From NCBI RefSeq assembly GCF_020595125.1, contig NZ_JACNMS010000002.1:248001-312000 (forward strand): a stretch of 64,000 bases of DNA, read 5' to 3'. The position numbers and the translations under genes were made by a program. Shown piece by piece: positions 5,635-27,677 of this stretch. How positions within the stretch are numbered: position 1 is the stretch's first letter; each line of letters opens with the position of its first letter. Below the pieces are notes generated by a model, which was not told where the DNA came from, did no database searches, and saw nothing but the letters and a program-made list of their open reading frames with translations. This DNA comes from Jeotgalibacillus aurantiacus (GTDB taxonomy: Bacteria; Bacillota; Bacilli; Bacillales; Jeotgalibacillaceae).

Positions 5635-5749
5635 GGGCATGAAGGCAGCCGAAGACTCCTGTGGCGGAAAGGGTCAGGTGAAACCGACTGTGCGCAGCTC
5701 AGGCGGGTTCACCGCCCGGCCACGGAAAGCGCAGGCTGCCTTCATGCCC
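5635..5749 (+). repeat. Structured dispersed repeat, copy 1 (115 bp)
   Basis: The outer arms GGGCATGAAGGCAGCC and GGCTGCCTTCATGCCC are perfect inverted repeats. The core contains GACTCCTGTGG, CAGGTGAA, TTCACCG and CCACGGAAAGCG. The same core recurs at 24786, 25784 (reverse) and 27566 (reverse) with different outer arms. Most of the 409-base spacer between ypvA and ypwA (5479-5887) is this element plus a terminator; nothing else is recognisable there. Confidence 0.9.
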
Positions 5750-5771
5750 GGCTTTAAAAAATATACCTTCT

Positions 5772-5812
5772 AAACGGGTTTGGCCTTTATGGCTGAATCC
5801 GTTTTATTTTTA
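5772..5812 (+). terminator. Intrinsic terminator upstream of ypwA
   Basis: AAACGGGTTTGGCC pairs imperfectly with GGCTGAATCCGTTT, followed by TATTTTT. It lies after repeat copy 1 and probably ends the ypsC-ypvA transcript. Confidence 0.65.
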
Positions 5813-5887
5813 TAACCGAAATACCTGACGGACATTTTCAGAAAAGTATGATAAGATATTACAGATTAGATAAAAGGGGGAAAAAGG

Positions 5888-7399
5888 ATGTCACTAGAAA
5901 CCGTTAAACACGATTTTCTTAATCATGTTAAGAAAATGTCAGCATATGAAGAAGCACTGGGCTTAATTTATTGGGACCTCAGAACAGGCGCGCCGAAAAA
6001 GGCAATAGATCAGCGCTCTGAAGTCATTGGTGCTCTGTCAGGTGACATTTTCAATATGTCTACATCAAGCGAAATGGCAGGATACATAGAAAAATTATCA
6101 GATCAAAAAGATGAGCTGGACGACCTGACGCTTAAAATTCTCGAGGAATGTAAAAAGAATTATGACCGCAATAATAAAATTCCTGAAGAAGAATATCGAA
6201 AATACGTCATTTTAAAATCAAAATCTGAAAATGTTTGGGAAGAAGCGAGAGCTAAATCAGACTTCTCCATGTTTCAGCCATACCTTGAAGAAATCGTTGA
6301 AATGAACAAAAAATTCATCAATTATTGGGGTTTTGAAGGTAACCCGTATAATACATTACTTGATATGTACGAGCCGGGCATTACCGTTGAAATTCTTGAC
6401 CGGGTTTTCACTGAGGTAAGAGACGCCATTGTTCCGCTTGTTAAAGGAATTCAGGAATCCGATGTAAAGCCGGAAACTGCATTTATTTACTCTCATTTTC
6501 CAAAAGAAGCCCAAAAAGAATTCAGTCTTTATGTCCTGAATGAGCTTGGTTATGACTTTGAAGCCGGCAGACTGGATGAGACGGTTCATCCATTTGCAAC
6601 CGGATTAAACACTGGGGATGTAAGGATCACAACTAGATATGATGAAAAAGATTTTCGGGGTGCGATTTTTGGGACGATTCACGAATGTGGTCATGCGCTT
6701 TATGAGCAGAATATTGATCCTGAATTGAACGGTACTCCTTTAAGTGGTGGAACATCGATGGGGATCCATGAGTCACAGTCGCTGTTTTTTGAGAATTTTG
6801 TAGGTAGACATCCTGAATTCTGGAAGAGACATCTGCCTGAGCTTAAGAAATTCAGTCCTGGCCAGTTCGACCAGGTTTCTGTAGATGGTTTTATTTCTGC
6901 TGTCAACGAATCAAAGCCTTCGTTAATCCGTGTTGAAGCAGATGAACTGACTTATGTCCTTCATATTATCGTTCGCTATGAAATCGAAAAAGGACTGTTC
7001 AACAACGAATTTAACGTAAGTGACCTGCCACGGATCTGGAATGAGAAGTACGAGGAATATCTTGGTGTTACACCATCGACTGATGCAGAGGGACTTCTTC
7101 AGGACGTTCACTGGTCAGGCGGGGCATTCGGATACTTCCCATCTTATGCGCTGGGTTATATGTATGCTGCCCAGTTTAAACAGGCTATGTTGAAAGACCT
7201 TCCTGATTATGACCAGTTAATCGCGAAAGGCGACATTACGCCTGTTAAAAACTGGATGACAGCAAACGTTCACCGTTTCGGCAAAACAAAAAAACCGCTT
7301 GAAATCCTGCATGATTCAACGGGTGAAGGCCTGAATTCCGAGTACCTGGTTGATTATTTACAGCAAAAGTATCGCTCACTATATGAGTTAACGAACTAA
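5888..7399 (+). CDS. ypwA: M32-family metallocarboxypeptidase (YpwA)
   Basis: A 503-residue zinc carboxypeptidase of family M32 (carboxypeptidase Taq type), which removes C-terminal residues from peptides in the cytoplasm. The zinc motif HECGH is at residues 265-269 and the downstream HESQS motif supplying the third ligand lies near 294. The family signatures DVRITTRYDE (about 241) and WNEKYEEYLGV (about 388) are also present. The length matches the family norm of about 500. AAAGGGGG precedes ATG 5888, and a TATGATA -10-like element lies about 40 bases upstream. It follows ypvA as in B. subtilis, where YpwA was characterised as an M32 enzyme. Confidence 0.93.
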   Translation: MSLETVKHDFLNHVKKMSAYEEALGLIYWDLRTGAPKKAIDQRSEVIGALSGDIFNMSTSSEMAGYIEKLSDQKDELDDLTLKILEECKKNYDRNNKIPEEEYRKYVILKSKSENVWEEARAKSDFSMFQPYLEEIVEMNKKFINYWGFEGNPYNTLLDMYEPGITVEILDRVFTEVRDAIVPLVKGIQESDVKPETAFIYSHFPKEAQKEFSLYVLNELGYDFEAGRLDETVHPFATGLNTGDVRITTRYDEKDFRGAIFGTIHECGHALYEQNIDPELNGTPLSGGTSMGIHESQSLFFENFVGRHPEFWKRHLPELKKFSPGQFDQVSVDGFISAVNESKPSLIRVEADELTYVLHIIVRYEIEKGLFNNEFNVSDLPRIWNEKYEEYLGVTPSTDAEGLLQDVHWSGGAFGYFPSYALGYMYAAQFKQAMLKDLPDYDQLIAKGDITPVKNWMTANVHRFGKTKKPLEILHDSTGEGLNSEYLVDYLQQKYRSLYELTN

Positions 7400-7406
7400 T
7401 AAGGGT

Positions 7407-8189
7407 GTGAAGTCATTGAATCTTCCTTCATTCAGACTGGATGGAAAAGTGGCAATTGTCACTGGTGCCGGTAGAGGGATCGGCAGAGCGTTATCCCTTG
7501 GAATCGCCGAGGCAGGTGCACACGTAATCCTTTGTGCACGTACATTGGAAGACCTCCAATACGTGAAGCATGAAATCGAAGAACGGGGAAGCAGCGCAAG
7601 TATTCTTCAGCTGGATCTGACAGAAAGCAGACTGATTAAAGATGCGATCAGACGAACAGCTGAAGAATTCGGACGTATTGATTTATTAATCAACAATGCC
7701 GGTATGAATATCCGTTCTAAAGCCTCGGATGTGACAGAAGAAGAGTGGTCTAAAATTATGGATACCAACCTGAAATCGGCATTTATGATGTCACAGGCTG
7801 TTGGTGAAATCATGAAAACACAGGAATCCGGTGGAAGTATTCTGTCCGTGTCTTCTGTAGCCGGACAGACTGCACTCCGAACGGGGGTCGTGTATGCTGC
7901 GTCAAAAGCTGCGCTTATTCAGATGACGAAGGTGTTGGCATTTGAATGGGGCAGTCATGATATTCGTGTCAACGCGATTGGTCCCTGGTATTTTGAAACA
8001 CCATTAACCAAAGAATTACTGGCGAATGAAGATTATTTAAATGATATCCTTTCTGTAACCCCGTTAAAGAGAGTCGGCAAGGTGGAAGAACTGATTGGTC
8101 CCGCACTATTACTGTTATCAGATGCCGGGAGCTATATAACCGGCCAGACACTTTTTGTAGACGGCGGGATGACCATCAACGGATTTTAA
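7407..8189 (+). CDS. SDR-family NAD(P)-dependent oxidoreductase
   Basis: A 260-residue classical short-chain dehydrogenase. It has the cofactor motif TGAGRGIG (about residues 20-27), NNAG (about 96), catalytic Ser in SVSSVAG (about 150) and YAASK with Tyr163 and Lys167. The C-terminus SYITGQTLFVDGGM resembles FabG and gluconate-5-dehydrogenase-like enzymes. The substrate cannot be predicted. The frame opens with GTG 7407, which is almost touching the purine run; TTG 7416, eight bases after GGGTG, is an equally likely start and would give MNLPSF. It lies seven bases after ypwA and is probably cotranscribed with it. Confidence 0.85.
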   Translation: MKSLNLPSFRLDGKVAIVTGAGRGIGRALSLGIAEAGAHVILCARTLEDLQYVKHEIEERGSSASILQLDLTESRLIKDAIRRTAEEFGRIDLLINNAGMNIRSKASDVTEEEWSKIMDTNLKSAFMMSQAVGEIMKTQESGGSILSVSSVAGQTALRTGVVYAASKAALIQMTKVLAFEWGSHDIRVNAIGPWYFETPLTKELLANEDYLNDILSVTPLKRVGKVEELIGPALLLLSDAGSYITGQTLFVDGGMTINGF

Positions 8190-8216
8190 AACTACGGTAA
8201 TGACTTCTTCACAAAT

Positions 8217-8253
8217 AAAAAAGACTGGGACAAATTTCTGTTCCGGTCTTTTT
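8217..8253 (+). terminator. Terminator after the SDR gene
   Basis: AAAGACTGGGACA pairs with TGTTCCGGTCTTT around a short loop, flanked by A and T tracts. It sits between convergent genes and may serve both. Confidence 0.8.
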
Positions 8254-8332
8254 ACGATGTTCAAAATGATAAGGGTCGTTTCTCCGAGCTGCCAGAAAAA
8301 GAGAAGTAGGTGGCCGGGCAGTTTTTATGATT

Positions 8333-8788
8333 TCAGCTTTGTGTAACAGAAACGAGAATGGAAAAGTCTCCAATCCCTGCTGCTGAAAAAGGAAGGTGGA
8401 TGGCATCATTAAAACCGTAAAGCTTTGTTGTCCCGGACATGACAGATGGAGGAGTGATGTCCATCTCAACGCCGGTTCCGGATACAAATGTTGAAAATGC
8501 CCCTGCAATCATATTTCCAACTTCCCCAATAAAGGAGATCAGCATTTCATCTTCAAGGTGCATACCAAACATCGTATTTCCAAGACTGCTGAAGTGGGAT
8601 TCCTTAGCATCAAGCAGGATATTCCCTCTAATATCTCCGGTAATTCCGATTAAAACCCCAATGGTTTCCTGCTTGTATGGCTGATCGACCATTTCGGGTG
8701 TTGAACAGCTGATTTCTGCCGGAATCACACTTTTTATCGAATGGACCATGCCCTCTAACATCTCGTTCATTACTTTAGTAATAGTCAT
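8333..8788 (-). CDS. cheX: CheX-like CheY-P phosphatase (CheC/CheX family)
   Basis: A 151-residue protein of the CheC/CheX/FliY phosphatase fold, which dephosphorylates CheY-P in chemotaxis. Family features seen are the helix motif FIGEVGNMIAGAF with the conserved E-x2-N pair (about residues 88-91), followed by PPSVMSG, and a CheX-like arrangement with one such helix instead of the two of CheC. The reverse-strand ribosome-binding site GGGAGGC precedes the ATG at 8788. It stands alone, with no other chemotaxis gene nearby. A related role in a different receiver-domain pathway cannot be excluded. Confidence 0.82.
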   Translation of the reverse strand: MTITKVMNEMLEGMVHSIKSVIPAEISCSTPEMVDQPYKQETIGVLIGITGDIRGNILLDAKESHFSSLGNTMFGMHLEDEMLISFIGEVGNMIAGAFSTFVSGTGVEMDITPPSVMSGTTKLYGFNDAIHLPFSAAGIGDFSILVSVTQS

Positions 8789-8940
8789 AGGAGCCTCCCG
8801 CGTTCTTTAATGAAACTATTATACCATTACTTAAGGCTTATAAGAAAGTTTTATATGTTTCTTTTTTATATATCCTGTGTAACGGCATGATTGAATCCGT
8901 TACAATAGAGAAAGGAATAGATAAGGGGCTGTATGGGGAC

Positions 8941-11900
8941 ATGGATAAAACTCAGTTTAAAATAGAAAAAGAGAAGCTGTTGAAGAAGCTGGCTGATTTT
9001 CAGTCAATCATTAAAAACAGCGGAGATCATGAAAGAGAAACAAAGGTAACACTGCTTGCTAAAAAGCTTTTAAATGAAGAATTTGTGATCGGCTTTTGCG
9101 GTCATTTTTCTGCAGGAAAATCTGCCATGATTAATGAACTGACAGGTGAAAGTATCCTGCCTTCGAGTCCGATTCCAACCAGTGCCAATTTAATCGCTCT
9201 GCATACCGGTGATAAAAAACAGATCAGAGTTACGCTTTCTGATGATACACAATATGATCTTCTTCCTCCTCTTGGGGAAACATCCATCAGTGCGCTCGGC
9301 AAGGAAGGGCTCAAAATCAAAAAAATCGATGTATGGCGATCATCCTCGGAGCTTCCGGAAGGCATTACAGTACTTGATACACCAGGGATTGATTCAGTTG
9401 ATGATGCCCATAAACGGTCAACTGAGTCTGCTATTCATCTCGCGGATCAACTGTTTTACGTGATGGATTATAACCATGTACAATCAGAAATGAATTTTGA
9501 ATACATAAAAAAGATGGTCCAGCATAACAGAAAAATTTCTGCAGTCATTAATCAGATCGATAAGCACAGAGAAGAAGAAATTCCATTTGATGTTTACAGG
9601 CAATCCGTTCAGGACGCCTTCACTCAATGGGGGGCTGTACCTGAAGCCTTTTATTATACGTCGCTTAAAGACAGCGTTCATCCTCACAATCAGCTTTACC
9701 AATTGAAAGAGATGCTCCATCAGATCGTCAGCCGGAAGTATGAACTGATGCTCTCGGCAGTGGAAAGTGGATTGTCCCTTATTCAGGCAGAACACAAAGA
9801 ATATCTTGAAGATGAAATGGAAGAAATCAGATTGGCATACGAAGAAATCGTGACGGATCAGGATCTTGAAAATCGGGCAGCCATCTTTGAAGAGGAGGAG
9901 CAGCTTGAACAGGAAACATCCATCTCTTCATTTAAAAGCTGGTCTGAAAGCTATGATATTGAAAAGGAAAAACTTTTAAAAGATGCTTACTTAATGCCGG
10001 CGGATGTAAGGTTAAAAGCAGAGCAATTTCTTGAATCCACCCAGAATTCTTTTAAAACAGGCGTCTTTTTTGCTGCTAAAAAGACTGAAACAGAACGAAT
10101 CAGACGTAAAGAGGCTTTTGTTCAGGCTTTACATGAGACGGTTGAAAACCAGCTGATCTGGCACGCAAAATCATTTGTCTACCGCTTTATTGAAAAAGGT
10201 GGTGCTTCTAGAACTGAATGGGCTCACAAGGTAGAAGGAATAGAGGTATCTGAACTTGAGGGCCTGATCCATTCCAGTGTGAAGCCTGGGGCAGGGTTCA
10301 ACGGGAATGCACTCCTGCATTACTGTGATGACCTTGCGGCAGCTGTACGGAGAACAGTCAAGATTCAGTTAGAGCAACTGAAATCAGAGATTGTGACAGA
10401 ACTTGAAGACCATATAGAAGAATCATCCGTGAAGAAGGAAGCTGGCAATAACAGAATCCGTCAGAAGGCCAATATCATCAGGCAGATCGAAAAAATTGAA
10501 GCTGCGCTCACCAGAGCAGAACAATCAGAATCAATCGGTGATGACCTCCAGGCTGTTTTTATTCAGGGTTGGTCGGAAGAAAACCGTGACATTTACGCCG
10601 TATCATCGATCCAGGAATTATTGTCTGATAGTGAAGAGCAGACGGATCATGATCAGCATCCAGCTGAACAATCACAAAAATCTTCTGAATCTCTTGATGA
10701 GGAATATATCATTAAAAAGAGCTATGCTGCAGCTGACCTGCTAAAGAAAATATCCGGATTTACCCATCAGTCGAAAACATTAAAAGGACAGGCGGAACGT
10801 CTTTCAAATAAACGATTTACTGTTTCGCTTTTCGGTGCATTCAGCGCAGGGAAATCTTCTTTTGCCAACGCGATTATCGGCAGGAAAGTACTGCCTGTTT
10901 CACCAAATCCGACGACTGCATCCATTAACAGAATCAATCCGCCAAATGAGGAATTTCCTGATAAAACAGCGGTCATTCATTTCAAAAAAGAACGGGAGCT
11001 GCTTGAAGATCTGCGATCAGTCAGTGAAAGTCCAATTGAATCCATTGAATCAGCAGGTGAAGTATTGCCGGCTGTTGTACGAGATCGCAAAGATCTTCCT
11101 GAGTCGAAAAAAAGCTTTATCCGCGCTTTTCTCAAAGGGTATTCATCATATGGATCAGAGCTTGGAAAATCAGTGAAAGTATCATTTGAAGCATTTGCAG
11201 GATATGTATCCAATGAACATCAGTCCTGTTTTGTTGAATCCATTGATCTTTATATTGATTCACCGCTCGCTGAGTCCGGGATTACGCTTGTAGATACACC
11301 TGGGGCTGATTCAGTTAATGCCAGACATACAGATGTTTCCTTTGATTATATTAGAAATTCTGATGCGGTTTTATTCGTGACCTACTACAATCATGCTTTC
11401 GCAAGAGCCGACCGGGAGTTTTTAATACAGATGGGTCGATTGAAAGAAAGCTTTGAGTTAGATAAAATGTTTTTCCTTGTGAATGCTGTTGATCTTGCCT
11501 CAAATGATCAGGAGAAAGATGATGTGATTCAATATGTGCAGGCTCAGCTGATGAAATTCGGTATCAGACAGCCCAAAATCTTTGGTGTATCGAGCCTTCA
11601 GGCGTTAAATGAAGAGACCAGACAGCAATCTGGAATTGACGAATTTAACGGGCAGTTTCATTCGTTTATTGAAGGGGATCTTCATGCCATAGCCCTTCAA
11701 AACGCACATGACTATCTTGACCAGACGATACACAGGATGAAGGTGCTGATTGACCGTTCGGAAAACAGTGCCGAAGAAAAAGAGCAATACAGGAATCAAT
11801 TAATGGAACACCGCCAAAAGATTGAGAAAGCATTGTCTGATTTATCCTTTACGGCACTAAGGAATCAGGCTGAACAGGAACTGAGTGAACTGATTTATTA

Positions 11901-12543
11901 TGTGAAGCAGCGTGTGTTTTACCGGTATCCTGACTTTTTTAAAGAATCATTTAATCCGTCAAGATTCAGTCAGATGCAGCCGAAACCTGCACTTGAAAAA
12001 TCCATCAATGAGCTGATTAGCGTTCTTGGGTTTGATTTTATGCAGGAATTAAAGGTAGTGAATCACCGCATGGACTTATTTATAGAGAAATCACTCATGC
12101 GTGATCTTGAAATACTGTGGGATATGATAAGAGAAGATTTCTTAAATGGGATGAAGCCGGTGATCCGCTCATCGACCTCTGATATGCTGACGTTTCCACA
12201 GCTGCTTTCAGGATATGATCATACTGAATTTGCCAAAGAAAAGTCGTATTATAAAAACAATCGATCCTTTTTCGAAAAAAATGAAAAGAAGTTTATGAAA
12301 GATGCACTTGGAGAAAGGCTGAAACAGATGGCCGATCAGGAAATAGCCGATGAGCAGGTAAGAATTCATGAATGGGTACAGACAGAGATCCAGTTGAAAG
12401 GAAAAGCTTATTTTACACAGTGGAAAGAAGAGATGACTGAACAGATTACAGCTGAAATATCCACGCTGGATTCAACTGAGATGACTGCAGAGCTGAAAAG
12501 AGTTTATCGATTACTAACCACTGCAGGTGATGAGCGTGAATAA
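8941..12543 (+). CDS. dynA: Bacterial dynamin with two GTPase domains (DynA/YpbR type)
   Basis: A protein of about 1200 residues made of two dynamin units in tandem. Unit one has P-loop GHFSAGKS (about residues 54-61), LDTPGIDS (about 144) and NQID (about 204). Unit two has GAFSAGKSS (about 632), VDTPGADS (about 784) and NAVD (about 848). Each unit is followed by long helical segments that form the stalk and membrane paddle. B. subtilis DynA tethers and fuses membranes and protects against phage and pore-forming stress. The frame is open from ATG 8887, but a TACAAT -10-like box lies inside that extension and no ribosome-binding site precedes it, so ATG 8941 is preferred. Confidence 0.9.
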   Translation: MDKTQFKIEKEKLLKKLADFQSIIKNSGDHERETKVTLLAKKLLNEEFVIGFCGHFSAGKSAMINELTGESILPSSPIPTSANLIALHTGDKKQIRVTLSDDTQYDLLPPLGETSISALGKEGLKIKKIDVWRSSSELPEGITVLDTPGIDSVDDAHKRSTESAIHLADQLFYVMDYNHVQSEMNFEYIKKMVQHNRKISAVINQIDKHREEEIPFDVYRQSVQDAFTQWGAVPEAFYYTSLKDSVHPHNQLYQLKEMLHQIVSRKYELMLSAVESGLSLIQAEHKEYLEDEMEEIRLAYEEIVTDQDLENRAAIFEEEEQLEQETSISSFKSWSESYDIEKEKLLKDAYLMPADVRLKAEQFLESTQNSFKTGVFFAAKKTETERIRRKEAFVQALHETVENQLIWHAKSFVYRFIEKGGASRTEWAHKVEGIEVSELEGLIHSSVKPGAGFNGNALLHYCDDLAAAVRRTVKIQLEQLKSEIVTELEDHIEESSVKKEAGNNRIRQKANIIRQIEKIEAALTRAEQSESIGDDLQAVFIQGWSEENRDIYAVSSIQELLSDSEEQTDHDQHPAEQSQKSSESLDEEYIIKKSYAAADLLKKISGFTHQSKTLKGQAERLSNKRFTVSLFGAFSAGKSSFANAIIGRKVLPVSPNPTTASINRINPPNEEFPDKTAVIHFKKERELLEDLRSVSESPIESIESAGEVLPAVVRDRKDLPESKKSFIRAFLKGYSSYGSELGKSVKVSFEAFAGYVSNEHQSCFVESIDLYIDSPLAESGITLVDTPGADSVNARHTDVSFDYIRNSDAVLFVTYYNHAFARADREFLIQMGRLKESFELDKMFFLVNAVDLASNDQEKDDVIQYVQAQLMKFGIRQPKIFGVSSLQALNEETRQQSGIDEFNGQFHSFIEGDLHAIALQNAHDYLDQTIHRMKVLIDRSENSAEEKEQYRNQLMEHRQKIEKALSDLSFTALRNQAEQELSELIYYVKQRVFYRYPDFFKESFNPSRFSQMQPKPALEKSINELISVLGFDFMQELKVVNHRMDLFIEKSLMRDLEILWDMIREDFLNGMKPVIRSSTSDMLTFPQLLSGYDHTEFAKEKSYYKNNRSFFEKNEKKFMKDALGERLKQMADQEIADEQVRIHEWVQTEIQLKGKAYFTQWKEEMTEQITAEISTLDSTEMTAELKRVYRLLTTAGDERE

Positions 12544-12712
12544 GAATTACCATGCCTGTGCAACGTGCCAACATTTTCAGGCTGTAAGAATAAAAAAAAG
12601 ACAGATGCTTTACCGCTGCAAAAGGCTTGGGTTTGAGACAAAACCCCACTATAAATTCAACTGCTGGCAGCCCAGACCGGATATAAAAAAACGTATGGAA
12701 GAAGGGATTTAA
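12536..12712 (+). CDS. Small four-cysteine, probable zinc-binding protein
   Basis: A protein of about 58 residues with C-x2-C (CATCQHFQ), a third Cys in YRCKRLGFETKP and a fourth in FNCWQP. The spacing suggests a zinc ribbon, with basic residues between the pairs. Possible starts are GTG 12527, ATG 12530 and GTG 12536. AGGTGA at 12525-12530 fits GTG 12536 best, and in every case the gene overlaps the end of the dynamin gene, implying coupling. It ends one base before the sulfurtransferase start. Similar small cysteine proteins are common in Bacillales; no function is assigned. Confidence 0.75.
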   Translation: MNKNYHACATCQHFQAVRIKKRQMLYRCKRLGFETKPHYKFNCWQPRPDIKKRMEEGI

Positions 12713-12713
12713 T

Positions 12714-13568: not shown

Positions 13569-13582
13569 AGGAGTATTACTGT

Positions 13583-14718: not shown

Positions 14719-14742
14719 GTTCAGGTGCAATAAGCCTGAAAA

Positions 14743-19055: not shown

Positions 19056-19093
19056 TTTCTTTATAAGAAATCTATGCAGCTTTAGATGATGTC

Positions 19094-19136: not shown

Positions 19137-19214
19137 ATGTGTGATAAACATAGAGAGGTTCGATTCAACTTCTTCCGGTATGATATGATAACAAAAAAGA
19201 TAGGGGCGATGAAG

Positions 19215-19730: not shown

Positions 19731-20325
19731 CGACCGCTTGTCCTCTGTTTATCAATCTGTCAAAACCTTATATGATGATGATTATACCGGGCATGGCTGG
19801 GACCATATAGAGAGGGTTCAGAGACTCGCATTAAAAATTGCCGGAATTGAAAATGAAGGAAATGAATCTTTAATCAGGTTACTCGTGTATCTTCATGATG
19901 CAGGAGATGCCAAACTACATAATGACCAGCGGGCGGCTGATGAATTTCTGATGAATACCATCAGCCAGGCAGGGTTTAATGAATCCGAAACGCAATTACT
20001 CATAAGTGAGTGCGGAGCAATCGGATTCTCCAAGGGGAAGATACCTGAAACCGTTGAAGGAAGAATTGTTCAGGACGCTGACCGGCTTGATGCAATCGGA
20101 GCGGTAGGGATTGCGCGCGCCTTTACATATGGAGCTGTCAAAAGAAATGCGTTTTATTCAGAACACTTACCTGAAGATACGGTGATTCAGCATTTTTATG
20201 ATAAACTTTTAACTCTGAGAGATCGAATGAATACAAAAACAGCGATTAAAATTGCCCATGAACGTCACCGTTTTATGGAGCAGTTTATCGGGCAATTTAT
20301 CAAAGAATGGAATGGTAGGAAATGA
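19720..20325 (+). CDS. ypgQ: HD-domain phosphohydrolase (YpgQ)
   Basis: A 201-residue HD-superfamily metal-dependent phosphohydrolase. The motifs are His25 or His29 in GHGWDHIERV, His59-Asp60 in YLHDAGDAK, and the later Asp in VQDADRLDAIG (about 119-121). B. subtilis YpgQ, structurally studied as an HD protein with nucleotide pyrophosphatase-type activity, is the closest named homologue. Several starts are possible (ATG 19702, 19714, 19720); GGAAG at 19708-19712 fits ATG 19720. Its stop overlaps the ABC-F start as ATGA. The true substrate is not evident. Confidence 0.85.
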   Translation: MVNDDRLSSVYQSVKTLYDDDYTGHGWDHIERVQRLALKIAGIENEGNESLIRLLVYLHDAGDAKLHNDQRAADEFLMNTISQAGFNESETQLLISECGAIGFSKGKIPETVEGRIVQDADRLDAIGAVGIARAFTYGAVKRNAFYSEHLPEDTVIQHFYDKLLTLRDRMNTKTAIKIAHERHRFMEQFIGQFIKEWNGRK

Positions 20326-22199
20326 AGCAGTGCAGATTAATCGACTTAACTAAAACATACGGAGATAAAGCCCTCTTTCATGACCTTAATTTAACCATCA
20401 CTGAGGGTGAAAAGATTGGTCTGATCGGGGTTAATGGTACAGGGAAGTCGACCCTTCTGTCCCTGATTTCCGGAATTGAGCTGCCTGATTCAGGCACCAT
20501 TGATCAGCCAAAGGATTTTACAGTGAGATTATTGGATCAGGAACCGGAGCTCGATGACGGATTGTCCATTTTGGAAACCGTTTTTAAAACGGATGCAAAA
20601 GTTGTTCAATTGATGAATCGGTTTGAAACGGCCTTGGCGGCTTATGAAAAAAATCCCGAATCTGCAGAAATACAGGAGAAGTTTATGGCCATTCAGCAGA
20701 AGATGGAGGAGGAAGAGGCCTGGGACGCAACCTCACAGGCCAAGACCATCCTTTCAAAGCTTGGGATCCATGATACCAATCGCCAAATCAACGAATTATC
20801 AGGTGGCCAGAAAAAAAGAGTTGCGCTCGCTCAGGTAATGCTTGAAACACCTGATCTGCTATTGCTGGATGAGCCAACCAACCATCTCGACTATCAAGCC
20901 ATCGACTGGCTGGCCGGTTATTTGAAAAAATATAAAGGCGCGTTAATGGTTGTCTCCCATGACCGTTACTTCCTTGATGAAGTATCAACTGTCATGGTTG
21001 AACTCGAAAATGGAAAGGCTTATCAATATAAAGGTAATTATGAATCATTTATTGAAGCGAAAGCATTAAGAGAAGAGCAGGAACAGGCTGAACAGCAAAA
21101 ACACAATAATTTATACCGTTCTGAGCTTGCCTGGATGAGAAAAGGGGCAAAAGCGAGAACGACTAAACAAAAAGCCCGGATTAAACGGTTTGAAGAGCTC
21201 GACAAAAAAACAGGTCCTGTCAATCAGGAGGATCTGACCATCAGTGCAGTCGGAAGCCGATTAGGTAAACAGGTGGTAGAATTAAAAAATGTCGCTAAAG
21301 CTTTTAATGGAAAAAGTATTCTTACAGATTTTGATTTTATGCTTCTTCCAGGTGACCGGATTGGTATTGCCGGTCCAAACGGCAGCGGGAAATCAACCCT
21401 TATGGATCTGATCAGCGGAAGGATTGAGCCTGATTCCGGATCGGTCATCATAGGGCAGACTGTAAAATTCGCCTATTTTTCTCAGGAAATCAAAGGGATG
21501 AATGAACAGCTCCGCATGATTGAGTATTTGCGAGAAGAAGCAGAAGAGGCAGTGACAAAGGAAGGGAAAGTGTCTGTCTCACAAATGCTTGAACAGTTCC
21601 TGTTTCCGCCTTCTGTTCATGGTACACCGATTTATAAATTGTCAGGTGGAGAGAAGAAACGCCTCTATTTATTGCGCCTGCTCATGCAGCAGCCGAATGT
21701 TCTTCTGTTGGATGAACCGACCAATGACCTGGATACCCAGACATTGACGGTGCTCGAAAACTTTATAGAATCTTTTGAAGGAGTCGTCATTACGGTTTCC
21801 CACGATCGTTATTTCCTCGATAAATCAGCAGAAAAGCTGATCATACTGGGTCACGATCAGGAACCTGAGATTGTTTTTGACCGATACAGTGATTATTTAG
21901 CTGCTAAGACGGACGAAAAACCGGAGCAAGCGGTAAAGGAAACAAAAAAAGAAAAACCTAAGCAGAGAGAAAAAAAACGGCTGTCTTTCCATGAAAAAAA
22001 AGAATGGGAAGAAATTGATGATAAAATCGCAGCTGCAGAGTTGAAAATAGAATCGCTTGAACAGGAGCTGAATCAAACAGGCAGCGACTTTACAAGAGCG
22101 GATGAAATCATGTCAGAACTTGAAAAAACGAATGATGAGCTTGAACACTTAATCGAGCGCTGGAGTTATTTATCTGAAATTGCTGAACAGGCCGATTAA
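20322..22199 (+). CDS. yfmR: ABC-F ribosome-associated ATPase (YfmR/Uup type)
   Basis: A 625-residue ABC-F protein with two ATPase domains and no membrane segment. Walker A motifs are GVNGTGKST (about 36-44) and GPNGSGKST (about 351-359). Signatures are ELSGGQKKR (about 159) and LSGGEKKR (about 440), each followed by DEPTN. A linker helix pair (about 240-300) and a C-terminal coiled coil (about 545-620) match YfmR and Uup. YfmR works beside EF-P to relieve stalled translation at proline-rich sequences. It is translationally coupled to ypgQ through an ATGA overlap. Confidence 0.88.
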   Translation: MKQCRLIDLTKTYGDKALFHDLNLTITEGEKIGLIGVNGTGKSTLLSLISGIELPDSGTIDQPKDFTVRLLDQEPELDDGLSILETVFKTDAKVVQLMNRFETALAAYEKNPESAEIQEKFMAIQQKMEEEEAWDATSQAKTILSKLGIHDTNRQINELSGGQKKRVALAQVMLETPDLLLLDEPTNHLDYQAIDWLAGYLKKYKGALMVVSHDRYFLDEVSTVMVELENGKAYQYKGNYESFIEAKALREEQEQAEQQKHNNLYRSELAWMRKGAKARTTKQKARIKRFEELDKKTGPVNQEDLTISAVGSRLGKQVVELKNVAKAFNGKSILTDFDFMLLPGDRIGIAGPNGSGKSTLMDLISGRIEPDSGSVIIGQTVKFAYFSQEIKGMNEQLRMIEYLREEAEEAVTKEGKVSVSQMLEQFLFPPSVHGTPIYKLSGGEKKRLYLLRLLMQQPNVLLLDEPTNDLDTQTLTVLENFIESFEGVVITVSHDRYFLDKSAEKLIILGHDQEPEIVFDRYSDYLAAKTDEKPEQAVKETKKEKPKQREKKRLSFHEKKEWEEIDDKIAAAELKIESLEQELNQTGSDFTRADEIMSELEKTNDELEHLIERWSYLSEIAEQAD

Positions 22200-22260
22200 T
22201 TCATGCCTTTAAAGGACTATGTTACAATGCAGATACAATGTTTGATCGGAGGGTGAACAC

Positions 22261-23397
22261 TTGAAAATATTATCTATCGAACCAACACCAAGCCCGAATA
22301 CGATGAAGGTCATCGTCGATGAAGCGCTGCAGGGCGGGAAAAGTAACAATTACAAAAAAGAGGACGCAGCAGATGCGCCATTGAAAATTAAGTCTCTCCT
22401 TGAAATTGACGGAGTAAAAGGAATCTATCATGTTGCTGATTTCCTTGCTGTTGAACGTCATCCAAAAGCAGACTGGCAACAGATCCTTCCAGCTGTCCGT
22501 GAAGTATTTGGAGAGGAAACGGAAGCAGAAAAATCAGAACATAAGCCGGATGAACATTACGGTGAAGTGAATGTTCAGGTTTTGCAATTCAAAGGGATTC
22601 CTTTACAGGTGAAACTGCTGAATGGTGAAACTGAAAAACGTTACGGACTTCCGGATTATTTCGCCCAGGCCATGGGTGAAGCACAATTAGCAGGCGACAA
22701 TGTCGTTCTCCAGAGAAAATGGAAAGATTTTGGTGTCAGATACGGAGATCTGGATAAAATTGCAGCAGAAGTAACTGAAGAAATACTTGCATCCTACCCG
22801 GCAAGCAGGGTTCAGGCAATCGTGGAAGCATCCAGAGAAGCTGGTACTGAATCGCCTAAAAGAGAACTCAGAAAAGTCAGTGCCGAAGAGCTTAAGAATG
22901 CAGACAGCTGGCAGGAACGTTACCAGCTGCTAGAGCAGATTCCTGAGCCGGATACAAGTGACCTCGACATGCTGAATGTTGCGCTGGAAGATGAAAAAGT
23001 GTCAGTTCGAAGACTGGCTGTCGTTTATCTTGGTATGATTGAGGATCCATCTGTCCTTCCATATTTATATAAAGGGCTGAATGATAAAAATGCCTCAGTC
23101 AGAAGAACGGCGGGAGACTGCTTATCAGATCTCGGTTTTCCTGAAGCAGAGGATGAAATGGCCAAAGCTCTTACGGATAAAAATAAGCTGGTCAGATGGA
23201 GAGCCGCTATGTTTTTGTATGAAGCAGGAACTGAAAAAGCACTTGACGCTTTAAAAGCTGTACAGGAAGACCCGGAATTTGAAGTGAAGCTTCAGGTATT
23301 GATGGCAATTGAACGGATCGAAGGCGGAGAAGAAGCAAAAGGATCAGTTTGGAAACAAATGACGGAAGCAAGAAAAGCAGGAATGGAGGAATCCTAA
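22261..23397 (+). CDS. ypgR: Conserved virulence factor C family protein (YpgR)
   Basis: A 378-residue two-part protein. Residues 1-90 are an Nfu/NifU N-terminal domain (PTPSPNTMKVIVDEAL, GIYHVADFLAVERHP). After a middle region, residues of about 235-375 form HEAT-like repeats (VRRLAVVYLGMIEDPSVLPYL, VRRTAGDCLSDLG, VRWRAAMFLYEAGTEKALD). The CxxC iron-sulfur module of true Nfu scaffolds is absent. Homologues include B. subtilis YpgR and S. aureus CvfC. TTG 22261 is used, preceded by GGAGGG. A TTACAAT -10-like box about 35 bases upstream suggests its own promoter. The stop codon overlaps the bacilliredoxin ATG. Confidence 0.85.
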   Translation: MKILSIEPTPSPNTMKVIVDEALQGGKSNNYKKEDAADAPLKIKSLLEIDGVKGIYHVADFLAVERHPKADWQQILPAVREVFGEETEAEKSEHKPDEHYGEVNVQVLQFKGIPLQVKLLNGETEKRYGLPDYFAQAMGEAQLAGDNVVLQRKWKDFGVRYGDLDKIAAEVTEEILASYPASRVQAIVEASREAGTESPKRELRKVSAEELKNADSWQERYQLLEQIPEPDTSDLDMLNVALEDEKVSVRRLAVVYLGMIEDPSVLPYLYKGLNDKNASVRRTAGDCLSDLGFPEAEDEMAKALTDKNKLVRWRAAMFLYEAGTEKALDALKAVQEDPEFEVKLQVLMAIERIEGGEEAKGSVWKQMTEARKAGMEES

Positions 23398-23831
23398 TGT
23401 CAATGGCATACGAAGAATACATGAAGCAGCTAGTAAAACCGATGAGAGAAGAACTGACGCAGGCAGGGTTTCAGGAGCTTAGAACGGAAGAAGAAGTTGA
23501 ATCATTTTTAGAAGAAGCAGAAGGCACGACACTTGTTGTGATCAATTCTGTCTGCGGATGTGCAGCTGGACTGGCAAGACCGGCTGTTACTCAGGCACTG
23601 ATCACACATGATAAAGAGCCGGATCATCTGGTGACGGTTTTTGCCGGTCAGGACAGAGAAGCGACTGCAAAAATGCGTAACCATTTCCCCGATTATGAGC
23701 CGTCATCGCCATCTATTGTGTTATTAAAAGAAGGCAGAGTCGCTCATTTTATTCCGCGCGAAGAGATTGAGGATCACAGCGTGGAAGATATTGTTGAAAA
23801 TATTAAAGGTGCAATGGATCTGCATTGCTAA
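23397..23831 (+). CDS. brxA: Bacilliredoxin BrxA (YphP)
   Basis: A 144-residue thioredoxin-like protein with the unusual C-G-C active site (Cys53-Gly54-Cys55 in NSVCGCAAGLARP), nearly identical to B. subtilis BrxA/YphP. It removes bacillithiol from S-bacillithiolated proteins after oxidative stress, so the organism should make bacillithiol. The frame extends upstream to 23349, but GGAGGAATCCTA places the start at ATG 23397, overlapping the ypgR stop. A strong terminator follows. It may share the oxidative-repair theme with msrA and msrB at 31.7-32.7 kb. Confidence 0.95.
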   Translation: MSMAYEEYMKQLVKPMREELTQAGFQELRTEEEVESFLEEAEGTTLVVINSVCGCAAGLARPAVTQALITHDKEPDHLVTVFAGQDREATAKMRNHFPDYEPSSPSIVLLKEGRVAHFIPREEIEDHSVEDIVENIKGAMDLHC

Positions 23832-23854
23832 AAGCGCCGATATGGCGCTTTTTT
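23830..23854 (+). terminator. Terminator after brxA
   Basis: AAAAGCGCC/GGCGCTTTT stem with loop GATAT, then a T run; it overlaps the brxA stop codon. Confidence 0.9.
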
Positions 23855-23876
23855 ATATGAGAGAAGGTGCAAAAAG

Positions 23877-24659
23877 TTGATTATTACAACGTCAGGACGT
23901 CCAGACAAAATATGCTTTGAAAATGCCGAGAGAGCGCAATCAGTTTTAGGAGGATCCATTATTCTGCGGAAGAAACGCTCTGTTAAGCAGCTGATCGACA
24001 TTTACAATGAACCCGTACTTGTCTCCGGAACGGACAGATTTGAATATTATTCATCAGACTCTACCACTCCATTCTTTTTCCACCCCAATTCAAGTGCTTT
24101 CAGAATCAAACGGATGCGAAAAGGAATGCCCGACCCGTTAATAGAAGCATCCGGGTTAAAAAATGGTGATACATTTTTGGATTGTACAGCAGGGCTTTGT
24201 TCAGATGCGATCACAGCAGCCTGTTTGACGCAGAACAAAGTAACAGCATTGGAAATTAATCCGATTACAGCATTTATCATCTCTGAAGGACTGAAGCAGT
24301 GGGAAACAGAAGATACGGATTTGAAAAAAGCAATGAGCAATGTAGAAATCATTAACACTCATTATGCTGACTATTTAAAAAGCTGCATGGACAACGAATT
24401 TGATATCATTTATTTTGATCCGATGTTTACAGAGGAGGTGCAATCAGAAGGAATTTCAGGATTAAGGCACCTTGCTGATGAGCATGATGAACGACTTGGG
24501 GAGGCTGTCAGAGAGGCGCAAAGAGTCGCAAGAAAATGCATTGTGCTGAAAGATCATTTCAGGTCTGAGAGATTCCATCTCTATGGATTCACTCAACTAA
24601 AAAGACCCTCCACCAAACAGCATTATGGAGTGATCAGGGTCGATCGTAATATGACATAA
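23877..24659 (+). CDS. ypiP: Class I SAM methyltransferase, RsmJ-like (YpiP)
   Basis: A 260-residue methyltransferase. The SAM motif is FLDCTAGLCSDAITAA (about residues 100-115), the acidic motif ALEINP follows at about 124, and YFDPMF at about 182 occupies the place of the DPPY/DPMY catalytic motif of RsmJ, which modifies 16S rRNA guanine. The B. subtilis neighbour-order equivalent is YpiP. It starts at TTG 23877 after GAAGGTG. The substrate is inferred from the fold and not established. Downstream lies a spacer holding repeat copy 2 and a convergent micro-ORF. Confidence 0.75.
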   Translation: MIITTSGRPDKICFENAERAQSVLGGSIILRKKRSVKQLIDIYNEPVLVSGTDRFEYYSSDSTTPFFFHPNSSAFRIKRMRKGMPDPLIEASGLKNGDTFLDCTAGLCSDAITAACLTQNKVTALEINPITAFIISEGLKQWETEDTDLKKAMSNVEIINTHYADYLKSCMDNEFDIIYFDPMFTEEVQSEGISGLRHLADEHDERLGEAVREAQRVARKCIVLKDHFRSERFHLYGFTQLKRPSTKQHYGVIRVDRNMT

Positions 24660-24785
24660 GGTTATCATGTCATTTGTATGATCAAATGAAGGGTAACTCA
24701 ATAAATTGAGTGGTTTTGTTCTTAAGCTTTAAGAATTCTATCTATACTTAAATGTAATGATTTTCTTGAAGGTGATTCTTTTTAA

Positions 24786-24898
24786 GTGACGGGGACATCC
24801 GGAGACTCCTGTGGGGGAAAGGGTCAGGTGAAACCAGCTGGGCGAAGCGCAGGTAGGTTCACCGCCCGGCCACGGAAAGCGCAGGATGTCCCCGTCAC
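24786..24898 (+). repeat. Structured dispersed repeat, copy 2 (113 bp)
   Basis: Outer arms GTGACGGGGACATCC and GGATGTCCCCGTCAC are perfect inverted repeats. The core keeps the same spacing as copy 1 (GACTCCTGTGG, CAGGTGAA, TTCACCG, CCACGGAAAGCG). It lies between the convergent ypiP and micro-ORF genes, in the spacer 24660-24945. The 24660-24785 part has only a weak ACTCAAT/ATTGAGT hairpin. Confidence 0.92.
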
Positions 24899-24921
24899 GG
24901 TTCTTAATAATAAAAACAAAA

Positions 24922-24940
24922 AAACCGGTTCGCCCGGTTT
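24922..24940 (-). terminator. Terminator of the 24-aa micro-ORF
   Basis: AAACCGG/CCGGTTT type stem with a TTCG(C) loop; on the minus strand a T-rich run follows. It starts six bases after the micro-ORF stop codon. Confidence 0.75.
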
Positions 24941-24945
24941 TTTTC

Positions 24946-25020
24946 TTACTCTGCAAACTGAAGGTATACCATATAACCAAGTAGCATCAAAAACCCAATG
25001 CTGATTAACGTATCTTCCAT
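24946..25020 (-). CDS. 24-aa single-pass membrane micro-protein
   Basis: On the minus strand ATG (25018-25020) opens 24 codons ending TAA. The peptide starts MEDTLISIG and continues with a hydrophobic helix (FLMLLGYMVYLQF) and an acidic end (AE), a one-helix membrane protein with acidic ends. GGGAGGG is six bases before the ATG, a near-ideal ribosome-binding site, and an intrinsic terminator follows directly. These three signals together support a real gene. I do not recognise a family. It is divergent from ypjP, whose start is 125 bases away. Confidence 0.7.
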   Translation of the reverse strand: MEDTLISIGFLMLLGYMVYLQFAE

Positions 25021-25145
25021 TTGAATCCCTCCCGATAAACAGACATTAGATAAATAGTTGCAATTTTATGAAACCAAAAGCAAATCTGTTCGTATTCTAG
25101 TATAATAGAACATACCTTAATCATACAAGAAGGGATTTGCGGTTT

Positions 25146-25736
25146 ATGCCAAACTGGTTAAAAAAATCATTTGTCGTATTTATCTCGATCATCACATTCG
25201 GAATGGTTTCACCACAGGATCTATTTGCTAATGAAACAGGCGATACTCATCATCAGGACCCATCTATTGCTGAGAACAATAAACAGACAGGCAGTGACCT
25301 TCCTCTCCTCGACAAGGAGACATCTGCAGAACTTTTGATCTCCCAGGCAAGAGAAATCACAACGGCTAAGCTTGGCGAACGGATCATGCCGAGAATCGAA
25401 TCTGATATCCAGTCTGAAGTATTGCCGAAAATGGAAGAAATGATTACAGAATTAATTTATACATATTCGGATGATGAATACTCCGAACTGATGATTTCAC
25501 CGGCAATTGGTAAAGGTGAGGGGGAACGGATTTTTCATATTATTGATGCGAAAACAAATGATGATGTACTATGTTTTCACGTAAGAAAAGACCGCCCGCC
25601 GCTTGAAGGTTACACATTTAACTTCCATTACCATACAGCAGAAGACGGCTTTGAAACGCATCATGAAATTGCTGACGTATACTGGGGTAAAGACACCCCT
25701 GCAAAATTCGGTTCCACAAGTTCGAATTTACATTAA
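25146..25736 (+). CDS. ypjP: YpjP-family protein, probably secreted or membrane-anchored
   Basis: A 196-residue protein with a basic start (MPNWLKKS), a hydrophobic segment FVVFISIITFGMVSP (about residues 9-24) and a likely signal cleavage after DLFA. The mature part carries a helical central region (about 60-115) and a C-terminal beta-rich section with FHVRKDRPPLEGYTFNFHYH. It matches B. subtilis YpjP in this position next to thymidylate synthase. The TTG at 25137 is open, but AAGGGA is too close; ATG 25146 is preferred. TAGTATAAT upstream (25099-25106 region) is the likely extended -10. Function is unknown. Confidence 0.82.
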   Translation: MPNWLKKSFVVFISIITFGMVSPQDLFANETGDTHHQDPSIAENNKQTGSDLPLLDKETSAELLISQAREITTAKLGERIMPRIESDIQSEVLPKMEEMITELIYTYSDDEYSELMISPAIGKGEGERIFHIIDAKTNDDVLCFHVRKDRPPLEGYTFNFHYHTAEDGFETHHEIADVYWGKDTPAKFGSTSSNLH

Positions 25737-25762
25737 ACCACTGAATTTTCAGTGGTTTTTTC
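25736..25762 (+). terminator. Terminator after ypjP
   Basis: AACCACTGAA/TTCAGTGGTT stem then TTTT, directly at the ypjP stop codon. The remaining spacer to thyA (25763-26074) holds repeat copy 3 and no other gene. Confidence 0.85.
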
Positions 25763-25783
25763 ATTGTATGCTTATAGTAAACC

Positions 25784-25895
25784 GTGCCAGGGACATCCTT
25801 CGCTTTCCGCGGCCGCGCGGTGAGCCAGCTGTGCTACGCACATCTGTCTCACCTGTCGCTTCTCTGCCGCAGGAGTCTACGGATGTCCCTGGCAC
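25784..25895 (-). repeat. Structured dispersed repeat, copy 3 (112 bp, reverse orientation)
   Basis: Outer arms GTGCCAGGGACATCC and GGATGTCCCTGGCAC are perfect inverted repeats. Read on the minus strand the core is GACTCCTGCGG, CAGGTGAG, CTCACCG and CCGCGGAAAGCG. Relative to copies 1 and 2, paired bases have changed on both sides of the inner and middle helices. Confidence 0.92.
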
Positions 25896-26074
25896 TAATG
25901 GTAATTGAATCAGAAAAATCTGTATCCTGAAGCAAAAAAAATGATTACAGATCTAAGCAAGTTTGTGTTTTGAAAATTAATCATCCTGCATTGTGAGATG
26001 TAGTTTGGAGTCGGTTAGATGATTCTGTTAAGATAAACTCGTACATATTATTCGAAACGAAAGGAAGTAGGTTC

Positions 26075-27016
26075 ATGAAGGTTTATCACGATTTATTATC
26101 ACATGTTCTGAATAACGGTGTCACGAAAGAAGACCGGACGGGCACCGGTACAATCAGTTCCTTTGGACACCAGATGAGATTCAATCTTCATGAAGGTTTT
26201 CCTTTAATGACGACAAAACGTGTGCCGTTTAAATTGATCGTCAGTGAGCTGATCTGGTTTATCAGGGGAGACACAAACATCCGCTATCTGCTTGAGCATA
26301 ATAATCACATCTGGGATGAATGGGCATTTAAGAAATGGGTAGAATCTGCTGATTATAAGGGTCCGGATATGACGGATTTCGGACTTAGAAGTCAGCAGGA
26401 TCAGGAATTTAACCTGCTTTATGAAAAGGAAATGAACGATTTCAGGGAGCGCATTTTAACTGATGATGAATTCGCCGGAAAGTATGGCTCCCTCGGTTCT
26501 GTTTATGGTGAGCAGTGGCGGAATTGGAAAACAACAAGAGGGGAAACGATTGATCAGCTGAAGGATGTTATTCATTCGATCAGGCATAATCCCGACTCAA
26601 GAAGACACATCGTCAGTGCCTGGAATCCTGAGGACATACCCGTTATGGCGCTGCCGCCGTGTCATACGCTTTTTCAGTTTTATGTTGCTGACGGTAAACT
26701 TTCCTGTCAATTGTATCAGCGCAGTGGTGATTTGTTCCTCGGCATTCCATTTAATATTGCCAGCTATGCACTCCTGACTCACCTGATTGCAAGAGAATGT
26801 GGTCTTGAACCGGGCGAATTTGTTCATACGATCGGAGATGCACATATTTATTCCAACCATATTGATCAGGTGAAGCTGCAGCTGTCCAGAGATTTCAGGG
26901 AGCTTCCGTCCATCAGCATTCAATCTGACAAGTCATTATTTGAACTTGATGTTCAGGATATTGTTCTTGAAAATTATGATCCGCACCCTGCTATTAAAGC
27001 ACCGGTAGCCGTTTAG
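26075..27016 (+). CDS. thyA: Thymidylate synthase, long ThyA type
   Basis: A 313-residue folate-dependent thymidylate synthase (dUMP to dTMP using methylene-THF). The nucleophile is Cys196 in [11 protein letters not shown]. Other signatures are DRTGTGT (about 20), FPLMTTKR (about 42), [21 protein letters not shown] and DAHIYSNH. An insertion of about 50 residues near 85-140 makes it the long form found in Lactobacillus and Staphylococcus, unlike the 264-residue ThyB of B. subtilis. AAAGGAAG precedes ATG 26075. It is followed after ten bases by dfrA, which recycles the dihydrofolate it produces. Confidence 0.97.
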
Positions 27017-27026
27017 GAGGAAAAGT

Positions 27027-27509
27027 ATGATTTCTATGATTGCTGCACACGGGTTAAATAGAGTGATTGGAAAAGATGGAGAAATGCCATGGCATCTTCC
27101 GGAGGACCTGAAGTATTTTAAAAATACGACAACAGGCAAAACACTATTAATGGGTCGGAAGACGTTTGAAGCTATGAATGGTCCATTAAAAAACCGCAGG
27201 AATGTTGTTTTAACTTCTAATAAGAAATGGTCGCATGAAGGTGCAGAGGTCGTGTACAGCCTTGAAGACGGTCTTGCAAAGCTGAGTGAAGAGGATGAAG
27301 GTTTTGTGATCGGAGGCGGGGAGATTTATAAAGCTGCACTCGAATATGCTGACCGTTTATACATCACGCTGATCCATGAAACATTTGAAGGCGATGCCCA
27401 TTTTCCTGAGTATGACCTAAAAAAATGGAAAGAAGTTTCAAGAGAAAAAGGGTTGAAAAATGAAAAAAACCCTTATGATTATGAATTCATTATTTACGAC
27501 CGAAAATAA
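27027..27509 (+). CDS. dfrA: Dihydrofolate reductase
   Basis: A 160-residue dihydrofolate reductase, NADPH-dependent, regenerating THF after thymidylate synthesis. Conserved features are MIAAHGLNRVIGKDGEMPWHLPEDLKYFK (substrate and Met20-loop region, Asp27-equivalent within PEDLKYFK), GRKTFEAM, and the cofactor motif VIGGGEIYKAAL. Usual chromosomal length and no sign of a transferable trimethoprim-resistance type. AGGAGG precedes ATG 27027. The operon thyA-dfrA matches the B. subtilis thyB-dfrA pair. Confidence 0.97.
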   Translation: MISMIAAHGLNRVIGKDGEMPWHLPEDLKYFKNTTTGKTLLMGRKTFEAMNGPLKNRRNVVLTSNKKWSHEGAEVVYSLEDGLAKLSEEDEGFVIGGGEIYKAALEYADRLYITLIHETFEGDAHFPEYDLKKWKEVSREKGLKNEKNPYDYEFIIYDRK

Positions 27510-27565
27510 GTGATTAAAAATTTGTTTTGGATACACTTTTTATCAGGTTGTTGAATGTCTAACCC

Positions 27566-27677
27566 GTGTCAGGTCATTCTGTCGCTTTCCACGGCCGTGC
27601 GGTGAGCCAGCTGTAAGGAGCACAGCTGGCTCACCTGTCGCTTCACTGTCGTAGGAGTCTGCAGAATGACCTGGCAC
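27566..27677 (-). repeat. Structured dispersed repeat, copy 4 (112 bp, reverse orientation)
   Basis: Outer arms GTGTCAGGTCATTCTG and CAGAATGACCTGGCAC are complementary except for one T/G wobble position. The inner helix is a perfect 14-bp stem, GGTGAGCCAGCTGT with its complement. On the minus strand the core is GACTCCTACGA, CAGGTGAG, CTCACCG and CCGTGGAAAGCG. It fills the gap between convergent dfrA and a membrane-protein gene, so it could act as a terminator for both. Confidence 0.92.

What the first reader, a model, noticed from the sequence alone, without database searches (positions are those of the whole stretch)
5635..27677. Four-copy family of ~112-bp structured repeats with variable outer arms
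Copies at 5635-5749, 24786-24898 (plus) and 25784-25895, 27566-27677 (minus) share a core (GACTCCT, CAGGTGA, TCACCG, GGAAAGCG) but have different 15-16 bp outer arms. Each pair of arms is nevertheless self-complementary within its copy. A simple dispersed repeat should keep its arm sequence; replacement of both arms together suggests selection for the helix, gene conversion between arms, or a target-derived arm. Related palindromic extragenic elements are widespread in Bacillaceae, but I know of no firm function.
Basis: partly seen in the sequence, partly recalled or inferred. Interest (0 to 1): 0.7.

Follow-up and report, generated by a model that had tools for sequence, protein, structure and literature searches.

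The report
Repeats with locus-bound self-complementary arms
A bacterium carries many copies of a small folded DNA repeat whose centre is much alike everywhere while the two outer arms differ from place to place yet still match each other, which makes the copies a natural record of how DNA hairpins change and repair themselves.

Summary
Four copies lie at the stated coordinates; arms pair 16/16, 15/15, 15/15 and 14/15. The genome (a Jeotgalibacillus) gives 150 model matches, the scoring cap. In 29 copies found mainly by their core, arm pairs are changed on both sides in 107 of 435 cells, G-U in 3, broken in 5. Copies with identical cores differ at 6.15 of 15 arm positions, as much as copies with ten core differences. 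In a sister species 25 elements keep their arms at the locus, while cores are swapped, inverted (27566 copy) or gain and lose ~125-150 nt modules. So arms belong to the locus and cores are overwritten. Arm pairs change without following the G-U route (transition fraction 0.35), with matched length changes, and a relative shows one arm rewritten to match the other (11 of 72 rows, 3.1 expected): footprints expected of replication template switching. Against it, between sisters one-sided arm changes outnumber paired ones; a G.T over A.C excess (37:20) suggests selection too. No pre-existing target palindromes were seen. A new BOX/bcr-like family with unusual uncoupling; function unknown.

The parts
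5635..5749 (+). Element copy 1 (A1-type core); arms 5635-5650 and 5734-5749, core 5653-5731, N/N' 5652 (A) and 5732 (C), not paired; sister species has an element with other arms at about the same place
   Evidence: blastn hit L025
24786..24898 (+). Element copy 2 (A1-type core); arms 24786-24800 and 24884-24898; N-N' G-C; same arms in the sister species
25784..25895 (-). Element copy 3 (A2-type core); arms 25881-25895 (5' on - strand) and 25784-25798; sister species has an element with other arms in the same intergenic region, other orientation
27566..27677 (-). Element copy 4 (A2-type core); arms 27663-27677 (5' on - strand) and 27566-27580, 14 of 15 pairs; like arms but inverted core in the sister species

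Best explanation
These are copies of a modular, structured, intergenic repeat. Each is a long hairpin: outer arms (15-16 bp), a small conserved internal loop of the form GNA/GN'A, and an inner core. SHOWN: arms mostly stay with the locus where they can be compared, while the core is replaceable - it is exchanged between subtypes, inverted, and gains or loses modules B and C inside like arms - and core and arm divergence are uncoupled. SHOWN: among copies, arm changes are nearly always Watson-Crick to Watson-Crick on both sides, include matched length changes, and do not follow the G-U route. INFERRED: cores are homogenised among copies by gene conversion, which tends not to reach the arms; when an arm mutates, the hairpin sometimes templates its own correction because the polymerase switches template within the folded strand, rewriting one arm as the complement of the other and at times flipping the core. 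A weak selection for the fold on the + strand probably acts as well. How copies first spread is not known.
For: Uncoupling: copies with identical cores differ at 6.15/15 arm positions (47 pairs); with 10 core differences, 5.86 (43 pairs). Locus-bound arms with another core: L134 11487 v L109 9548, arms identical, core A2 v A1, N-N' changed T-A to C-G. Modules B and/or C present in one species only, inside arms that are identical or differ one-sidedly, at nine loci read. Core inversion at 27566 (inverted alignment score 53 v 17.5). Arm cells: 107 both sides changed, 3 G-U, 5 broken of 435. Pair types: transition fraction 0.35, about the one-third of random replacement. Matched indels: 17 of 176 copies have uninterrupted arms longer than 15 bp, and 12 of the 15 with exactly 16 keep the A...GG boundary; one-sided indels 0 of 176, and 1 of 172 with 4 ambiguous when the finder allows a gap. 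In G007 the GGA/GGA mismatch block is fully complementary in 11 of 72 rows v 3.06 expected, maximum 9 in 20,000 permutations, in both directions (L195, L203 left rewritten; L201, L194 right rewritten). At orthologous loci paired changes exist (L140 1308: two pairs and nothing one-sided; the two L128 elements: one pair each). Template switching that homogenises arms and flips spacers is described in yeast (PMC8604942, abstract and section 6 read) and proposed for RNA stems (PMC8794818, outline, abstract and section 7 read).
Against: At short divergence one-sided arm changes dominate: 33 one-sided v 13 paired in 30 same-arm rows; after I removed repeat rows and one doubtful neighbour by hand, 24 v 8 in 25 elements. 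In the pair G008/G011 ten readable loci gave one paired change (L368/L400), the rest one-sided, read by eye. So correction is slow or rare. The G.T over A.C excess points to selection on one strand, which symmetric cruciform repair would not give. In yeast the affected spacers are short (PMC8604942 section 6); here the spacer is 80-370 nt, though it folds itself. No event was seen between strains of one species. At some loci (window 5635, L135 9221, L126 11499) arms and core both differ, which also fits fresh insertion at the same place. The set of 176 was ascertained by complementary arms.
Confidence: 0.52

Rival explanations
1. Ordinary compensatory evolution: the element acts as RNA or single-stranded DNA, and selection keeps the outer helix while point mutations accumulate and are compensated one by one. 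The core stays alike because it is under stronger constraint or is converted.
For: G.T exceeds A.C on the + strand (37:20 unfiltered; 26:9 at up to two non-WC pairs). N-N' covary (65 WC of 104 v 28.7 expected in short G000 copies; weaker in G004, 14 of 34 v 9.1). A conserved GGA/GGA block inside variable helices of G007 looks like a functional motif. Divergent (promoter) gaps hold few elements: 7 of 101, against 92 of 604 gaps. One-sided changes dominate between sisters.
Against: G-U cells are rare (3 of 435) and pair replacements are transversion-type as often as random; matched indels almost without one-sided ones; whole-block rewriting of a mismatch that most copies keep; orientation to codirectional genes is not clearly biased (38 v 25).
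Confidence: 0.29
2. Arms are made at insertion: a new copy arrives as a core and both arms are produced at the target (fold-back copying of flanking DNA), then decay by single mutations.
For: Arms nearly unique per locus even with identical cores; one-sided changes dominate between sister species; 111 of 176 copies have perfect 15-bp arms.
Against: Arms share a strong consensus at many positions, odd for random targets; sister loci show clean paired changes; no clean empty site with one arm was found: candidates such as L129 4391 v L118 read better as deletions.
Confidence: 0.13
3. The core inserts into pre-existing palindromes such as terminators, so the arms are split target hairpins.
For: Would explain arms that differ by locus but pair; T-rich DNA often follows the 3' arm.
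Against: Of 95 perfect hairpins away from elements in 0.92 Mb, the 70 printed are mostly A/T-flanked and terminator-like; none is arm-like except one core-deletion derivative (L114 174-220). Arms begin A|G and end C|GG in most copies.
Confidence: 0.03

Closest known systems
BOX elements of Streptococcus (boxA-boxB(n)-boxC; PMC3049150, passages read)
   Same: Small interspersed repeat, predicted to fold, modular, with inner modules gained and lost between strains while the ends stay.
   Different: Here the modules sit inside one closing stem whose sequence differs from locus to locus; no sequence relation was tested.
bcr1-bcr18 repeats of the Bacillus cereus group (PMC3446304, passages read; bcr1-bcr3 called MITE-like there)
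   Same: Intergenic, dispersed repeats of a Bacillus group; 84 of 165 and 62 of 155 copies were part of an mRNA in that study.
   Different: Sequence not compared here; a MITE should keep its terminal inverted repeats, whereas these arms vary.
Bhal-1, Bacillus halodurans (74 bp, 36 copies, listed with a conserved structure; PMC2267715, table passages read)
   Same: Length close to the 77-82 nt core, related host group, stem-loop.
Quasipalindrome / template-switch mutation (PMC8794818, abstract and section 7; PMC8604942, abstract and section 6; PMC7202029, abstract start in listing only)
   Same: Arm homogenisation, several mismatches mended at once, spacer inversion.
   Different: There: mutation assays, yeast coding genes, rRNA stems. 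A dispersed bacterial repeat family with a long folded spacer was not among the listings I saw (15 of 301, 10 of 153 and 10 of 48 papers listed).

Membership tests
Rfam 15 families | score above a family's gathering cut-off | tested here: not met
   window and five loci with short and long forms: only RNase P, T-box, FMN and tRNA matches
MITE | constant terminal inverted repeats | tested here: not met
   83 distinct left arms among 99 short G000 copies; the 5 readable of 29 G030 loci do share arms
MITE | target-site duplication | tested here: inconclusive
   no clean empty site seen in the orthologous intervals read
REP with RAYT | linked Y1 transposase family | tested here: not met
   G007 has 105 matches at 1e-5 and no PF01797 match at 1e-5; G013, G025, G027 have 9, 5 and 3 and no element at the cut-off. 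G000 itself has two PF01797 matches
REP with RAYT | 20-40 bp palindrome (PMC3733652, listing only) | tested here: not met
   intact elements are about 110-415 bp; the GTAG/CGTC tag was not tested
BOX-like modular repeat (works like) | inner modules gained or lost between fixed ends | tested here: met
   nine orthologous loci; sequence membership in BOX not tested
Bhal-1 | sequence similarity | not testable with these tools
template-switch hairpins | several mismatches mended at once from the other arm | tested here: met
   11 of 72 v 3.06 by permutation
template-switch hairpins | spacer inversion between like arms | tested here: met
   one locus, 27566
template-switch hairpins | dependence on replication or helper enzymes | not testable with these tools
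   needs mutation assays

The most novel reading that the evidence does not exclude
The arms are lasting, locus-specific addresses, and the inside (A core, B and C modules) is a set of interchangeable cassettes moved from arm pair to arm pair by a dedicated hairpin-recognising activity that needs only the flanking GNA/GN'A motif and a double-stranded arm of any sequence: a cassette-exchange system without a fixed recognition sequence.
Probability: 0.12. Interest if true: 0.8.

Novelty: new variant of a known kind. Interest (0 to 1): 0.56.

Why it matters
How long stems keep perfect pairing while their sequence drifts is an old question; template switching is a proposed answer that is hard to see in rRNA because selection hides it. 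A genome with about 150 or more related hairpins that differ in arms, with a sister species, and a relative whose copies hold a built-in mismatch block, gives many natural replicates for measuring arm rewriting, core inversion and core conversion in bacteria.

Tried and rejected
Insertion into terminator-like palindromes: looked for arm-like hairpins without cores; among the 70 printed of 95 found one deletion derivative (L114) and one hairpin around a module-C-like piece (L121 2774). RAYT mobilisation: presence does not follow element number. Plasmid, phage and viral carriers: no match (one exact pattern only in the last). Known RNA family: none at gathering cut-offs. Published name: text searches found nothing that I could tie to it (and four words of the core); only open-licence PubMed Central papers are held. 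'Arms born perfect' was my leading idea mid-way, because sister loci mostly differ by one-sided changes; paired changes at L140 and L128 and the G007 block test moved me to template switching. Class-wide search gives 4 of 151 genomes at 1e-7 under strict filters against 30 of 41 at 0.01 among relatives, the own genome included, so spread outside the order is little tested. Dropped rows: L007, L014, L023 (anchor words failed); 24 of 29 G030 loci had no readable anchors; 5 of 55 G000 and 6 of 55 G004 elements had no orthologous interval; the middle of the output was cut, so parts of L135 13376 and L141 6035 were not seen; three G008 loci could not be placed.
Full report
WHAT IS THERE. The four copies are real and at the stated places. 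They are a sample of a large family: blastn with copy 24786-24898 gives 43 matches in the window's own genome, two of them 25-base pieces, and a covariance model built from 29 copies gives 150, the scoring cap. The genome belongs with Jeotgalibacillus: its sister G004 has contig 29 of 530,891 bases, the length of a contig of Jeotgalibacillus sp. R-1-5s-1 that encodes a ThyA 96% identical to the window's. In 30 of 41 genomes (the own one, its genus and one each of other families of the order) the model matches at E 0.01 or better.

ANATOMY. From outside in: A | arm (15, sometimes 16 bp) | G N A | core of 77-82 nt that begins AGACTCC and ends GAAAGCG | N' A | arm' | GG, then often T-rich DNA. 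G N A faces G N' A, and N and N' covary (65 WC of 104 against 28.7 expected in short G000 copies; 14 of 34 against 9.1 in G004). There are two core subtypes (A1 GGAAAGGG.CAGGTGAAACC; A2 GAGAAGCGACAGGTGAGAC). Longer copies (25 of 129 in G000, 13 of 47 in G004 with core length 100 or more) carry extra hairpin modules inside the same closing arms: B (about 125 nt) and C (about 150 nt), with no Rfam match at gathering cut-offs; one A-B-C copy folds at z -9.0.

ARMS AND CORE ARE UNCOUPLED. In 29 copies found mainly through their cores, 430 of 435 arm cells pair; in 107 both sides are changed against the commonest pair, 3 are G-U, 5 are broken. In 99 short G000 copies with good arms, copies with identical cores differ at 6.15 of 15 arm positions (47 pairs) and copies with ten core differences at 5.86 (43 pairs). 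Seven copies with one and the same 77-nt core carry seven different arms.

SISTER COMPARISON. I compared 55 G000 elements in about 0.45 Mb with G004; 50 have an orthologous interval (alignments, part cut). Twenty-five elements have like arms in both species, eight of them identical (counted by hand after removing repeat rows and one doubtful neighbour); eleven rows pair elements with different arms, at least three of these being comparisons with a neighbour. Inside like arms the core differs in several ways: another subtype (L134 11487 v L109 9548, arms identical), a module B or C in one species only (nine loci), an inverted core (27566 copy: inverted alignment score 53 against 17.5), a deletion, a nested element. 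None of the ten other genomes of the genus gave a match at the thyA-folA locus at E 0.05, the sister did, so window copies 3 and 4 are confined to this pair among the genomes looked at.

HOW ARMS CHANGE. Between sisters, one-sided changes are commoner than paired ones: 33 against 13 in the 30 raw rows, 24 against 8 in the 25 elements. In a second pair, G008 and G011, ten readable loci gave one paired change, the rest one-sided (by eye). This speaks for slow correction, and also suits the rivals. Yet clean paired changes exist: L140 1308 has two pairs changed and nothing one-sided, and both elements of the L128/L117 block have one. Among paralogues, pair replacements are transition-type in 35% of comparisons, about the third expected if any pair may follow any other, so the G-U route is not the path. 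Seventeen of 176 copies have uninterrupted arms longer than 15 bp; 12 of the 15 with exactly 16 keep the A...GG boundary; one-sided indels are 0 of 176, and 1 of 172 (4 more ambiguous) with a finder that allows gaps. The 176-copy set was found by a script that asks for complementary arms, so its pairing percentage is not evidence; the kinds of change are.

A BUILT-IN TEST. In G007 of the same genus, 72 rows (70 loci; 105 model matches in that genome; some loci hold two elements) show arms that vary in pairs on both sides of a mostly conserved mismatch block, GGA facing GGA. In 11 rows the block is fully complementary, against 3.06 expected and at most 9 in 20,000 permutations of the right blocks. 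Some have the left block rewritten to match the right (L195, L203), some the reverse (L201, L194). Point compensation of a mismatch that most copies keep is a poor account; copying of one arm from the other is a good one. The 30 loci taken first were the best-scoring model matches and so lean to perfect arms; the other 40 continue down the list in order.

SELECTION. G.T exceeds A.C in the arms on the element's own strand, 37 to 20 over all 176 copies (p 0.03) and 26 to 9 where at most two pairs are not Watson-Crick (p 0.006); in G004 alone it is not significant. So some strand-specific selection is likely. None of 110 elements lies in an ORF in my simple calling, but the script set aside ORFs under about 900 nt that overlap an element, so this is partly by construction. 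Of 101 with both neighbours called, 63 lie between codirectional genes (38 same strand, 25 opposite), 31 between convergent and 7 between divergent ones, against 404, 108 and 92 gaps in all. No clear orientation to genes; few in divergent gaps.

READING. I take the family as a modular, hairpin-forming repeat of the BOX or bcr kind. Its cores are overwritten among loci, most likely by gene conversion, while arms stay. Arms mutate, and are brought back into register partly by template switching inside the folded strand, partly by selection. Template switching is known to homogenise arms and invert spacers (PMC8604942, abstract and section 6 read) and has been proposed to create and maintain RNA stems, with loop inversion alongside a compensatory change named as the strongest support but found extremely rare in rRNA (PMC8794818, abstract and section 7 read). 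Here one inversion of a whole core was seen. Shown: locus-bound arms, replaceable cores, paired and matched-length changes, block rewriting. Inferred: the polymerase mechanism, the conversion mechanism, any function. Unknown: how copies first spread; no Y1 transposase link, no plasmid, phage or viral match.

ARM FIXITY ELSEWHERE. In G030, of another family, the five readable of 29 loci share one arm apart from single substitutions. So arm diversity seems a property of some lineages, as expected if it depends on age, conversion and rewriting, not on the element's design alone.

Noticed in passing
window 63263-63493 and 63530-63746: Two T-box leaders in tandem on the + strand at the window's end.
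   Followed up: no
L117 7509-7900; L128 17474-17742; L118 19062: Long forms with modules B and C in different orders (A-B-C and A-C-B), no Rfam match where searched; module junctions repeat the 3' end motif GAAAAGCGGAGG.
   Followed up: partly
L128 17150-17742 v L117 16416-16817: Two neighbouring elements appear in swapped order and orientation between the sister genomes, as if inverted as a block, each with one paired arm change.
   Followed up: partly
L138 16833-16958: Chimeric element: left arm does not match its right arm and looks like that of a neighbour lost by deletion; the sister has the matching arm.
   Followed up: no
L114 174-220: Core-deletion derivative that keeps a perfect 15-bp arm pair around a 17-nt loop.
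   Followed up: no
window 24919-24943: A terminator-like hairpin lies just behind element 2, so that copy may be part of a 3' untranslated region (read).
   Followed up: no
L140 near 1430-1550; L135 near 13500: Runs of short repeats with units like GTGGTTAAATAACC beside elements.
   Followed up: no
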